Shown in pieces: positions 3,367 to 14,114 of a DNA stretch of 64,000 bases (the first letter of the stretch is position 1; each line of letters begins with the position of its first letter). The notes beneath the pieces were generated by a model. That model was not told where the DNA came from. It was given only the letters and a program-made list of their open reading frames with translations, and searched no databases. Origin of the DNA: Pogonophryne albipinna (Eukaryota; Chordata; Actinopteri; Perciformes; Artedidraconidae); assembly GCA_028583405.1 (NCBI GenBank), contig CM053249.1, positions 40,698,999 to 40,762,998 on the forward strand. The letters run 5' to 3'. Position numbers and translations under genes: made by a program.

Positions 3367-3425
3367 AGTAGTATTAACCATGCCCTTTCAATCACATTAG
3401 TATGCATAAAAAGTGACAGGTGACA

Positions 3426-3880
3426 CGCCCCCAATTATGCAAATGAGCTAAGTCCCGCCTCCCATTGTTCGAGACCCTTTGATGTGAGATAACAGGTAGG
3501 TGTGAAAAGCCCCCCTGTGTAGTGCCTTTGTTGTCTAATTCTTTGATGTGTTGATTAAGGCAGTCTCTTTGAAGTTATGTTGTCTGGCCCCTGTCCCCCC
3601 TTGTAGTCTAAGCCTTTGATGTGAGATAACAGGTAGGTGTGAAAAGCCCCCCTGTGTAGTGCCTTTGTTGTCTAATTCTTTGATGTGTTGATTAAGGTAG
3701 GTGTGAAAAGCCCCCCTGTGTCGTGCCTTTGTTGTCTATTTCTTTGATGTGTTGATTAAGGCAGTCTCTTTGAAGTTATGCTGTCTGGTCCCCTCAGGGT
3801 TGTATAATCTAATTAGCCTTTGATGTTTTGCCCTTTGATGTGGTGTGTTATAAGCCTTTGATGTTAATCTAGGTGTCTCT
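3426..3880 (+). repeat. Subterminal block with repeated CTTTGATGT motif (left)
   Basis: The motif CTTTGATGT occurs eight times here (near 3477, 3541, 3613, 3678, 3742, 3818, 3832 and 3855), with a ninth at 4423. It sits within partial tandem copies of a longer unit containing GAGATAACAGGTAGGTGTG and AAAGCCCCCCTGTGTAG. CTTTGAT matches the core of TCF/LEF sites (CTTTGWW). Whether the block is bound in cells is unknown; it may instead be a subterminal transposase-binding repeat. Confidence 0.7.
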
Positions 3881-4337
3881 TTGAAGTTATGCGTGAGACT
3901 GTCTAACCCCCTCCCCGCCCAGGCCTCTCCCCCCTTTCTCCCCCCCCTTCCTTTTGGGCCCTGAGGCTAGCAGATAGGGGGGAGGGAATTTGGTGAAAAT
4001 AGGAATAAGCTCTAAACTAATTAAAAAAGACAGTAATTTCCACTTACCAAGTCACCTTGCAAAAAAAAGAAAATTGGCCTGTGACAACTTACCGCCATCC
4101 GTCCGGAGCGCCAGTCAAGAAACGAATGCCTCAGTGGGGCGGGAGTCAGACGCCTACAGCCAGAGATCTTTGCATAAACTTATCGCGTGCCCTCTTTTTG
4201 GTTGTGGAGCGCGTTCATGTGTGCTGGAGGAGGGGCTCTGTGAGGAAGTGGCAGATTTTCGGTTGTGTACTTTCAAATTCTCGCTCACTCGAGATGGTTT
4301 CTCCAAAATGACCTACCCCTACCTTTAAGAACAATTA

Positions 4338-4413
4338 ACACACACACACACACACACACACACACACACACACACACACACACACACACACACACACACA
4401 CACACACACACAC
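4338..4413 (+). repeat. (CA)n microsatellite, about 38 units
   Basis: Uninterrupted CA dinucleotide run inside the left arm. It generates a spurious His/Thr open reading frame that is not a gene. Its partner in the right arm is longer. Confidence 0.95.
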
Positions 4414-5329
4414 GTTGGAGTTGGCCTTTGATGTGAGGGTTAGAGATAAGCCTGGGATGTTAATCTATATGTTGATTAAGACACTCTGTGAGGTGAGAAG
4501 CGAGGGGATGGAGTTCGTCTTTAAAAAAGAAATACGCTCAAACTAAATAAAACAGCCATTAATTTTCACCCACTAAGACACCTAAAAACGTTATTGTCCT
4601 CTCTAGATTTGATTCAGGGTTTTGCTTTAAATGATTAGTGCTTGCTAAGGATGTTTCTTTTCAAGTTTTTGTGAAACTGTTAACTACAAGGAAGTATCTG
4701 TCTGCAAAGAAGGTATTCATATTAATTTAAAAAAGATCTTATTTAGGTTTTAATAGTGATAACTAAGTTTCACTCTGTGCGGGGACAAAAGAAGCATCGT
4801 TAATCACCTGGATAAAGGACTCTTTAAAGCAGAGATACCATATGCAGACACACACCTGAATATCAGCAGGAGAGGAGTCTCTAAAGTAAATACATTATAG
4901 GGTTAAAATAAGATATATATGTGATGGAATTAGTTTAAAACAGTCACCTTACACTTTTTTAGTTGTCCTCTCTAAATTAGATGTAAGGTTTTTTGTTTTT
5001 TTTAAATGATTAGTGTTAATTAAGGCCTATTGTTATTTTGGTTTATAAGGGGATAAGAGTTCAACTTTTAAAAATTGCACAGGATCATTCTAAGAAGAGT
5101 GAGAGGGCTAATGAGCCAGCACCATACCTCCTCTATGCATTTTCTTGACCTGTATCTGATCTTGAAAAACTCTGGTAAGTACTTTTTTATTTTTATCTTA
5201 TAATATCATGTAATTATTAAATGTTTTTTTTTTTTTTTGGTAGGGGTTAAACTAGTATATTATGTGGATAGTATATTATTAGATACTTACAAATGTTATG
5301 TTTTTTCTGTTTACAGTAGAGACCCTGTG

Positions 5330-12110: not shown

Positions 12111-13018
12111 TCTACTGTAAACAGAAAAAACATAACATTTGTAAGTATCTAATAATATACTATCCACATAATATACTAGTTTAACCCCTACCAAAAAAAC
12201 AAAACAACATTTAATAATTACATGATATTATAAGATAAAAAAAAAAAAGTACTTACCAGAGTTTTTCAAGATCAGATACAGGTCAAGAAAATGCATAGAG
12301 GAGGTATGGTGCTGGCTCATTAGCCCTCTCACTCTTCTTAGAATGATCCTGTGCAATTTTTAAAAGTTGAACTCTTATCCCCTTATAAACCAAAATAACA
12401 ATAGGCCTTAATTAACACTAATCATTTAAAAAAAAAAAAACCTTACATCTGATTTAGAGAGGACAACTAAAAAAGTGTAAGGTGACTGTTGTAAACTAAT
12501 TCCATCACATATATATCTTATTTTAACCCTATAATGTATTTACTTTAGAGAGTCCTCTCCTGCTGATATTCAGGTGTGTGTCTGCATATGGTATCTCTGC
12601 TTTAAAGAGTCCTTTATCCAGGTGATTAACGATGCTTCTTTTGTCCCCGCACAGAGTGAAACTTAGTTATCACTATTAAAACCTAAATAAGATCTTTTTT
12701 AAATTAATATGAATACCTTCTTTGCAGACAGATACTTCCTTGTAGTTAACAGTTTCACAAAAATTTGAAAAGAAACATCCTTAGCAAGCACTAATCATTT
12801 AAAGCAAAACCCTGAATCAAATCTAGAGAGGACAATAACGTTTTTAGGTGTCTTAGTGGGTGAAAATTAATGGCTGTTTTATTTAGTTTGAGCGTATTTC
12901 TTTTTTAAAGACGAACTCCATCCCCTCGCTTCTCACCTCACAGAGAGTGTCTTAATCAACATATAGATTAACATCCCAGGCTTATCTCTAACCCTCACAT
13001 CAAAGGCCAACTCCAACG

Positions 13019-13133
13019 TGTGTGTGTGTGTGTGTGTGTGTGTGTGTGTGTGTGTGTGTGTGTGTGTGTGTGTGTGTGTGTGTGTGTGTGTGTGTGTGTG
13101 TGTGTGTGTGTGTGTGTGTGTGTGTGTGTGTGT
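13019..13133 (+). repeat. (TG)n microsatellite, about 57 units
   Basis: Partner of the (CA)38 run in the left arm. The length difference shows that the arms have diverged since they were formed, or differ through replication slippage. Confidence 0.95.
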
Positions 13134-13599
13134 TAATTGTTCTTAAAGGTAGGGGTAGGTCATTTTGGAGAAACCATCTCGAGTGAGCGAGAATTTGAAA
13201 GTACACAACCGAAAATCTGCCACTTCCTCACAGAGCTCCTCCTCCAGCACACATGAACGCGCTCCACAACCAAAAAGAGGGCACGAGATAAGTTTATGCA
13301 AAGATCTCTGGCTGTAGGCGTCTGACTCCCGCCCCACTGAGGCATTCGTTTCTTGACTGGCGCTCCGGACGGATGGCGGTAAGTTGTCACAGGCGTCTCT
13401 TGGCCAATTTTCTTTTTTTTGCAAGGTGACTTGGTAAATGGAAATCACTGTATTTTTTAATTAGTTTAGAGCTTATTCCTATTTTCACCAAATTCCCTCC
13501 CCCCTATCTGCTAGCCACAGGGCCCAAAAGGAAGGGGGTGGAGAAAGGGGGGAGAGGCCTGGGCGGGGAGGGGGTTAGACAGTCTCACGCATAACTTCA

Positions 13600-14010
13600 A
13601 AGAGACACCTAGATTAACATCAAAGGCTTATAACACACCACATCAAAGGGCAAAACATCAAAGGCTAATTAGATTATACAACCCTGAGGGGACCAGACAG
13701 CATAACTTCAAAGAGACTGCCTTAATCAACACATCAAAGAAATAGACAACAAAGGCACTACACAGGGGGGCTTTTCCCACCTACCTTAATCAACACATCA
13801 AAGAATTAGACAACAAAGGCACTACACAGGGGGGCTTTTCACACCTACCTGTTATCTCACATCAAAGGCTTAGACTACAAGGGGGGACAGGGGCCAGACA
13901 ACATAACTTCAAAGAGACTGCCTTAATCAACACATCAAAGAATTAGACAACACAGGCACTACACAGGGGGGCTTTTCACACCTACCTGTTATCTCACATC
14001 AAAGGGTCTC
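13600..14010 (-). repeat. Subterminal block with ACATCAAAG motif (right)
   Basis: Inverse of the CTTTGATGT block at 3426-3880, with eight ACATCAAAG copies here and a ninth near 12998. The TCF/LEF-like core is kept in every copy. Confidence 0.7.
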
Positions 14011-14114
14011 GAACAATGGGAGGCGGGACTTAGCTCATTTGCATAATTGGGGGCGTGTCACCTGTCACTTTTTATGCATACTAATGTGATTGAAAGGGCA
14101 TGGTTAATACTACT

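What the first reader, a model, noticed from the sequence alone, without database searches (positions are those of the whole stretch)
3367..14114. Giant palindromic non-autonomous Polinton/Maverick
A 10.7-kb element that is almost entirely two inverted arms has AG...CT ends, a 6-bp target duplication, and polymerase B remnants. Polinton derivatives are rarely described as full-length foldbacks. If the assignment holds, this is a MITE-like or foldback class of Polinton: arms of about 4.9 kb with tandem repeats rather than genes. It may have formed by hairpin or snap-back replication from one terminus, which fits protein-primed replication that starts at the ends.
Basis: partly seen in the sequence, partly recalled or inferred. 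Interest (0 to 1): 0.9.

Follow-up and report, generated by a model that had tools for sequence, protein, structure and literature searches.

The report
Giant palindromic Polinton derivative
A 10.7-kb gene-less relative of a virus-like transposon (Polinton/Maverick), in what is probably a fish genome, is built as one long palindrome; the same genome holds several others, and one of them can be traced to a copying strand that turned round and copied its way back to its own starting end.

Summary
Window 3367-14114 begins AGTAGT, ends ACTACT and is flanked by CCCAAC on both sides. Its arms (4,986 and 4,925 bp) are 98.9% identical. Removing the insert and one duplication restores a reading frame. 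The Polinton assignment also holds: at least 40 copies of the terminus were scored in this genome, and one 14.9-kb copy (C21) with integrase and viral family-B polymerase matches shares the outer 911 bp of the window arm at 97%. The window arm is the polymerase-side end of such an element, heavily deleted and filled with 174-bp repeats. The surprise is recurrence. Of 16 elements with both ends located, 14 have exact 6-bp duplications. Of 12 read inside, 10 have nested inverted arms longer than C21's 1.06-kb repeats (patchy in three). A 2.8-kb copy is the integrase-side end copied inward, switched at a 3-base match across 82 nt, then copied back to its own tip. Another fold-back axis recurs at 22 of 40 scored sites. 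Best reading: snap-back products of protein-primed replication, formed before integration, comparable to snap-back defective viral genomes. The papers seen in my searches do not describe them; the window's own switch is not cleanly readable.

The parts
3361..3366 (.). 6-bp target-site duplication CCCAAC, left copy
14115..14120 (.). 6-bp target-site duplication CCCAAC, right copy
3367..8352 (+). left arm of the palindrome, 4,986 bp
9190..14114 (-). right arm of the palindrome, 4,925 bp, 98.9% identical to the left arm over 4,705 aligned positions
8353..9189 (.). asymmetric centre. A copy of the 7.0-7.47-kb module meets inverted PolB/satellite sequence at about 8835; 2-nt AA overlap at the switch by inspection. 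A 160-bp query across it matched end to end only here among 40 scored places; L027 matches across the centre at 88.7% with a different local order
3367..4277 (+). outer 911 bp of the arm, 97% identical to both terminal repeats of the gene-bearing Polinton C21
3601..3761 (+). 64-bp subterminal tandem repeats (mirrored at 13720-14004)
4654..5337 (+). patches of the PolB-side end of C21 (L018 3997-3883, 3480-3409, 3221-3096), in order going inward
5334..6515 (+). 174-bp satellite array of the arm (also 7682-8339, 8864-9860, 10748-12097)
6493..6624 (+). PolB motif-C fragment, 44-aa open frame; matches C21 polymerase region L017 8759-8670
7544..7675 (+). second PolB motif-C fragment
9903..9968 (-). 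mirror copy of the PolB fragment (core pattern)
10675..10740 (-). mirror copy of the PolB fragment (core pattern)
8376..8627 (+). 84-aa open frame (also 7035-7286, and inverted within 10253-10480). Its last 31 residues match the end of a longer frame in element C5a (L019). No relative found
3189..3366 (-). host retroelement-like reading frame interrupted by the insertion (other half 14121-14278)

Best explanation
The feature is a non-autonomous Polinton/Maverick whose body is one long palindrome. Parent Polintons are taken to replicate as linear DNA by a protein-primed family-B polymerase with strand displacement (known for adenoviruses and expected for Mavericks, PMC8097293 passages; inferred here). 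While copying inward from one end, the growing 3' end stalls, anneals at a few complementary bases to the displaced strand or to itself, and copies back out to the tip where it began. The product is a hairpin with the same complete terminus at both ends. Once second-strand synthesis completes it, it has two functional origins and two integrase sites but few or no genes. It is then replicated and inserted with a 6-bp duplication by proteins supplied in trans. Shown here: the termini, duplication, palindrome, shared ends with a gene-bearing Polinton, recurrence, insertion with exact duplications, and one base-level switch in a sister element. Inferred: the enzyme, the free linear intermediate, and supply in trans. 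For the window copy, its own switch cannot be read as one clean event, probably because its satellite arrays have since changed.
For: (1) Terminus, duplication and restored frame. (2) Gene-bearing Polinton C21 (L017/L018, 14.9 kb, duplication GAGGAC): rve E=2.5e-11; DNA_pol_B_2 E=4.2e-17 and 1.8e-19 in two separate pieces. The window arm's outer 911 bp matches both its ends at 97%, and the inner arm matches its PolB side in order. (3) 16 elements with both ends located: 14 exact 6-bp duplications, one displaced by an extra ACT (C1), one without (C7). (4) Share of length in nested inverted arms, one chaining rule: C3 90%, window 85%, C12a 82%, C5a 78%, C20 76%, C11 72%, C7 66%, C1 59%, C10a 54%, C10b 32% (middle not fetched), C15b 29%, C21 14%. 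(5) C3 (2.8 kb, duplication GTCATG) reads the integrase-side end of C21 to L017 1524, then the reverse complement from 1609 back to the tip. The overlap at the switch is TGT, 82 nt are present once, and four unswitched copies keep the parent order (both arms of C20, C5b, C21). (6) A second fold-back axis, a T-run/A-run stem with a loop of about 28 nt, is present at 22 of 40 scored places. (7) Prediction test: in 7 small windows where symmetry placed missing tips, 7 of 7 held a tip (77-94% identity over the match), and the four elements they complete all have exact duplications. (8) Exact duplications at the palindrome tips mean the palindrome existed before insertion or changed only inside the element.
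Against: The window's centre contains modules that do not reduce to one snap-back. At two loci sharing part of this design no right end was found beyond the point where the arm match stops, so they are apparently truncated (C12b, C12c). The near identity of the arms could come from conversion between arms after formation. Inverted arms in C1, C10a and C7 are patchy, and C7 lacks a duplication. C15b has plain 0.67-kb repeats, so not all non-autonomous copies are palindromes. Partner arms are not always closest: 5 of 24 ends are closer to another element and 2 are tied; part of C5a is closer to a third copy 30 kb away (L021, 99.2%) than to its own other arm (98.8%), and in a C12a stretch the own partner is missing. 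None of the three loci opened at the recurrent axis showed a tip within the 10 kb fetched, so duplication of host segments is not excluded there. The C3 uniqueness search carried only 10 bases on one side of the switch, so it is weak on that point. No free DNA, reads or protein data were available.
Confidence: 0.7

Rival explanations
1. The element inserted with ordinary, short terminal repeats, and the second arm was written later, inside the chromosome, by conversion or break repair copying one arm over the other side (terminal-repeat extension).
For: A single-arm relative with 0.67-kb repeats exists (C15b). The arms of one element are often closer to each other than to other elements: over the outer 105 bp the other end of the same element is strictly closest for 17 of 24 ends, tied for 2. 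Longer stretches agree for the window, C20 and C11; C5a agrees except for the third copy L021.
Against: C3 has a clean switch with 82 nt present once and the tip at both ends. The same fold-back axis at 22 of 40 scored sites suggests that palindromic cores move as units. Integrase-side and PolB-side arms both occur, each with its own tip at both ends.
Confidence: 0.2
2. Assembly artefact: a chimeric or hairpin read produced a false second arm.
For: Inverted duplication is a known long-read artefact (recalled).
Against: The arms differ by 51 substitutions and by 168- and 276-bp blocks. Host flanks are distinct, the 6-bp duplication is present, and a reading frame is restored across it. Several other loci show the same design.
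Confidence: 0.03
3. A foldback element of another superfamily that merely captured a PolB fragment.
For: Giant foldback elements exist in other superfamilies (recalled). The window PolB piece is only 44 aa and gives no Pfam hit by itself.
Against: The termini match a gene-bearing Polinton at 97% over 911 bp, and further patches of its PolB side follow in order. The end motif and duplication length fit vertebrate Mavericks.
Confidence: 0.03

Closest known systems
Vertebrate Mavericks/Polintons (PMC8097293: passages and section 7 read)
   Same: (AGT)2//(ACT)2 ends, 6-bp duplications, PolB side and integrase side; C21 in this genome is one
   Different: Published intact elements have terminal repeats of 46-1,447 bp and full gene sets. 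Here the inverted arms are 4.9 kb (about 4.8 kb in C5a, 4.4 kb in C10b) and most genes are gone. 'Nonautonomous' and 'palindrom' occur 0 times in that text
Snapback genomes of adeno-associated virus (PMC8235507: passages read)
   Same: Self-complementary genomes made from either end, symmetric or with a loop, able to replicate when Rep and helper functions are given
   Different: A parvovirus, seen in virus preparations; here germline insertions of an element with a family-B polymerase
Palindromic incomplete genomes of adenoviruses (recalled; no paper read)
   Same: Protein-primed linear DNA with one end duplicated in inverted form
   Different: Passage products, not inherited insertions
Foldback/long-repeat DNA transposons such as FB and Galileo (recalled)
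   Same: Mobile elements that are mostly inverted arms with internal tandem repeats
   Different: Other superfamilies with other ends and duplication lengths; no protein-primed replication

Membership tests
Polinton/Maverick | AGT-repeat end motif (AGT)2//(ACT)2 | tested here: met
   Window ends AGTAGT...ACTACT; motif from PMC8097293
Polinton/Maverick | 6-bp target-site duplication | tested here: met
   CCCAAC at both sides, frame restored; relatives: 14 exact of 16 including the window
Polinton/Maverick | Termini shared with an element carrying family-B polymerase and rve integrase | tested here: met
   C21:
Polinton/Maverick | Protein-primed replication | not testable with these tools
   Needs an experiment; inferred from the polymerase family and end motif
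Polinton/Maverick | Own PolB, integrase, ATPase, protease and capsid genes (autonomous member) | tested here: not met
   Only PolB fragments; the longest stop-to-stop frame in the window element is 116 aa. It is filed as a non-autonomous derivative
Polinton/Maverick | Terminal repeats within the reported range of intact elements (46-1,447 bp) | tested here: not met
   Inverted arms of 4.9 kb; range. A range for intact copies, not a strict criterion
Snap-back (template-switch) palindrome | Traceable switch at short complementarity with a single-copy loop | tested here: inconclusive
   Met for the sister element C3 (TGT, 82 nt); inconclusive for the window copy itself
Defective interfering genome | Interferes with the parent | not testable with these tools
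   Needs an experiment

The most novel reading that the evidence does not exclude
The genome carries a germline record of defective-interfering genomes of its own Polinton/Maverick virus: palindromes made repeatedly by snap-back from either end, with two identical origins that would favour them over the parent, spread as a parasite of the parent and possibly acting as inherited interference against it.
Probability: 0.35. Interest if true: 0.9.

Novelty: new variant of a known kind. Interest (0 to 1): 0.77.

Why it matters
Direct evidence of how vertebrate Polintons replicate is scarce (recalled). Switch junctions frozen in the germline are a readable trace of inward copying, strand displacement and return to a complete tip, so the protein-primed linear-replication model becomes testable by counting axes. 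It also gives an inherited counterpart of snap-back defective viral genomes, and a mechanism for making giant palindromes that insert intact.

Tried and rejected
Homologue search for the 84-aa frame: none found. IMG/VR scans with the 18-bp tip, the 84-aa frame and a PolB motif pattern: no relative. Phage collection with the arm: none. PDB: nothing useful for the 84-aa frame, the PolB fragment or the C21 455-aa frame. NCBIfam: nothing for the PolB fragment or the 84-aa frame. Rfam over the window at gathering thresholds: none. Another superfamily: rejected on the shared termini. Two head-to-head insertions: rejected, no tip at the centre. C12c and C12b were followed for a right end; none was found in the fetched 4.6 kb (C12c) and 4.7 kb (C12b) past the end of the arm match, so they are apparently truncated. 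The three loci opened at the recurrent axis showed no tips within 10 kb; two had long inverted arms, L045 only a 243-bp local palindrome. The partner-closest test on the outer 220 bp was disturbed by subterminal repeats (17 of 24) and was repeated on 105 bp (17 of 24 strictly, 2 tied).

Sampling. One search listed 40 nearly full-length tips; only the best 40 of 1,328 candidates were scored, so copy numbers are lower bounds. I opened 19 elements or loci behind those tips (window included). Eleven tip places were not opened with the fetch from genomes (C172, C19, C650, C15:17.2 Mb, C11:6.4 Mb, two on C18, C15:29.4 Mb, C2, C5:10.6 Mb, C8:39.6 Mb; C172 and C19 were held as 3.2-kb loci only). A further tip, C5:19663136, was fetched only in part (L021) and not used as an element. 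Twelve opened elements had both ends in hand. Four more (one of them the already opened C5b) were completed; they were chosen because their integrase-side probe lay in inverted pairs, so they are not a random sample, and their middles were not read (of C5b only the first 7.8 kb). C15a, C13, C158, C833, C12b and C12c had no second end in the stretches fetched and are left out of the counts. The C10b figure of 32% includes a local inverted block; its coaxial arms are about 4.4 kb each.
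Full report
Observation. The element runs from 3367 to 14114, is flanked by CCCAAC on both sides, and consists of arms 3367-8352 and 9190-14114. They align over 4,705 positions with 51 mismatches (98.9%) and seven gaps, including 168- and 276-bp blocks on opposite arms. The centre, 8353-9189, is asymmetric. Within the window the terminal 13-mer occurs exactly only at the two ends. When the element and one CCCAAC are taken away, a 112-codon frame runs across the join on the minus strand. This shows that the element inserted into a retroelement-like frame at exactly these bases. 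The name gag is from memory; Pfam gave no hit.

Anatomy. From tip to centre the arms have an AGTAGT tip, 64-bp subterminal repeats, an AC/GT run, about 1 kb without tandem repeats, arrays of a 174-bp satellite, a PolB motif-C fragment, a module with an 84-aa open frame, then satellite and PolB fragment again. The longest stop-to-stop frame in the element is 116 aa. The 84-aa frame found no relative in the protein collection. Its last 31 residues match the end of a 261-aa frame in another copy, C5a, for which Pfam gave nothing above its cut-off.

Family. The window lies in an unnamed assembly of 1.07 Gb in 861 contigs. It is probably a fish; that is inferred, not tested. The outer 200 bp has at least 40 nearly full-length matches, and only 40 of 1,328 candidates were scored. 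Twelve elements had both ends in hand. Ten have exact 6-bp duplications, C1 has its duplication after one extra ACT, and C7 has none. Element C21 (14.9 kb, GAGGAC) bears genes: rve integrase (2.5e-11), DNA_pol_B_2 in two pieces (4.2e-17, 1.8e-19), and a weak A32-like ATPase match below cut-off; five other frames of C21 that I gave to the call had no Pfam match. The window arm matches both C21 terminal repeats at 97% over 911 bp. Further inward it matches C21 from the PolB side, in order: L018 3997-3883, 3480-3409, 3221-3096, then L017 8759-8670 in the polymerase region. So the arm is the PolB-side end with large deletions and added satellite. The end motif and the 6-bp duplication agree with those reported for vertebrate Mavericks (PMC8097293, passages and section 7). 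A polymerase search of the whole genome gave 78 matches; merging neighbours by eye I count 35 places, none in the window.

Palindromes recur. Using one chaining rule, the share of each element that lies in nested inverted arms is: C3 90%, window 85%, C12a 82%, C5a 78%, C20 76%, C11 72%, C7 66%, C1 59%, C10a 54%, C10b 32% (only its outer parts were fetched), C15b 29%, C21 14%. Ten of these twelve exceed C21's 1.06 kb per arm; in C1, C10a and C7 the arms are patchy. The inner arm blocks of C5a are 99.0-99.9% identical, but its left side carries about 2 kb near the tip without a partner. C20 and C10b have integrase-side arms; an rve domain was found in both arms of C20 and in the left arm of C10b, and the right arm of C10b has a frame of the same sequence. 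Window, C12a, C7 and C15b carry PolB-side sequence. C15b is a single-arm relative with 0.67-kb repeats.

Prediction test. A probe from the integrase side gave 40 scored places, ten of which form five inverted pairs 7.5-10.7 kb apart. One pair is C20. For the other four I predicted the positions of the missing tips and fetched seven windows of 1.2-1.5 kb. All seven held a tip, and the four elements (10.5-13.6 kb) have exact duplications TCTATG, GGTGTG, AACAGC and TTAATC (the left tip of the last was already in L034). In each, the probe lies 1.3-1.9 kb from both tips in inverted orientation. These four were chosen for being paired, so they show that palindromes sit between proper duplications, not how frequent they are.

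How it forms. C3 is the clearest case. It reads C21 from the tip (L017 146) to 1524, then the reverse complement from 1609 back to 146. The parent order is kept in C21, in both arms of C20 and in C5b. At the switch...CTTTCCTTGT from the forward strand meets TGTCCAACAG from the reverse strand: three shared bases, with 82 nt present once. This is what is expected if a growing end anneals to the displaced strand or to itself and copies back to the tip. A second axis has a stem closed by a T-run/A-run and a loop of about 28 nt (sequences), and was seen as adjacent inverted matches at 22 of 40 scored places. So that core has spread, though no tip was reached in the three such loci I opened. The window's own centre query matched end to end only at the window (1 of 40 scored); by inspection its switch shares AA. 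A match across the same centre exists in L027 at 88.7%, with a different local order. I cannot reduce the window's centre to one event; satellite turnover has probably blurred it.

Which step is shown and which inferred. Shown: ends, duplication, arms, family, recurrence, the C3 switch, and insertion with both tips. Inferred: protein priming, a free linear intermediate, helper proteins acting in trans, and advantage over the parent. Conversion between arms after insertion remains possible and would explain part of the within-element similarity: 17 of 24 ends are strictly closest to the other end of their own element, 2 tied, 5 closer to another element. One stretch of C5a is closer to a third copy 30 kb away (L021, 99.2%) than to its own partner (98.8%).

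Novelty. Eight literature searches were answered (open-access PMC only). No title or abstract start listed there describes palindromic Polintons; only 15 of 53 papers were listed. I saw passages of PMC6431247, PMC9004415, PMC8235507 and PMC10766183, and passages plus one section of PMC8097293. In that vertebrate Maverick survey 'nonautonomous' and 'palindrom' occur 0 times, and repeats of intact copies are 46-1,447 bp. Snapback genomes are described for adeno-associated virus (PMC8235507). I rate this a new variant of a known kind: a snap-back, non-autonomous class of Polinton. Repbase entries could not be searched, so an unnamed consensus of this family may exist there.

Noticed in passing
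15623-20361: Retroelement with repeats 15623-16170 and 19836-20361 in the same orientation (93.5%) and long minus-strand frames, one with DUF5641.
   Followed up: no
31971-33078: 28 copies of a 39-bp repeat, open in several frames on both strands.
   Followed up: no
40778-43961: A second inverted repeat: arms of about 1.09 kb, 97.9% identical, about 1 kb apart, with a frame carrying a CXC (TCR) domain at 41686-42612.
   Followed up: no
59704-60345: Frame with an integrase core domain (PF24764, 3.2e-46).
   Followed up: no
53266-55257: 663-aa stop-to-stop frame with many C2H2 zinc fingers, perhaps a host gene.
   Followed up: no
L022, L039, L040, L023 (C10:17139842-17170276): A 30.4-kb element with duplication TCCGTG and 4.4-kb arms with an integrase frame; most of its middle was not fetched.
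   Followed up: partly
L019, L024: Palindrome-bearing relatives carry accessory open frames (252, 261, 175 and 206 aa) with no Pfam family above cut-off.
   Followed up: partly
tips of the 16 elements: The bases after AGTAGT vary between elements (ATTAAC, TATAAG, ATTAAG, AGTAAC, ATTACC and others), yet the two tips of one element agree over the first 12 bases in 13 of 16 (not in C7, C5:14.6 Mb and C5b), as if both ends were copied from one.
   Followed up: partly
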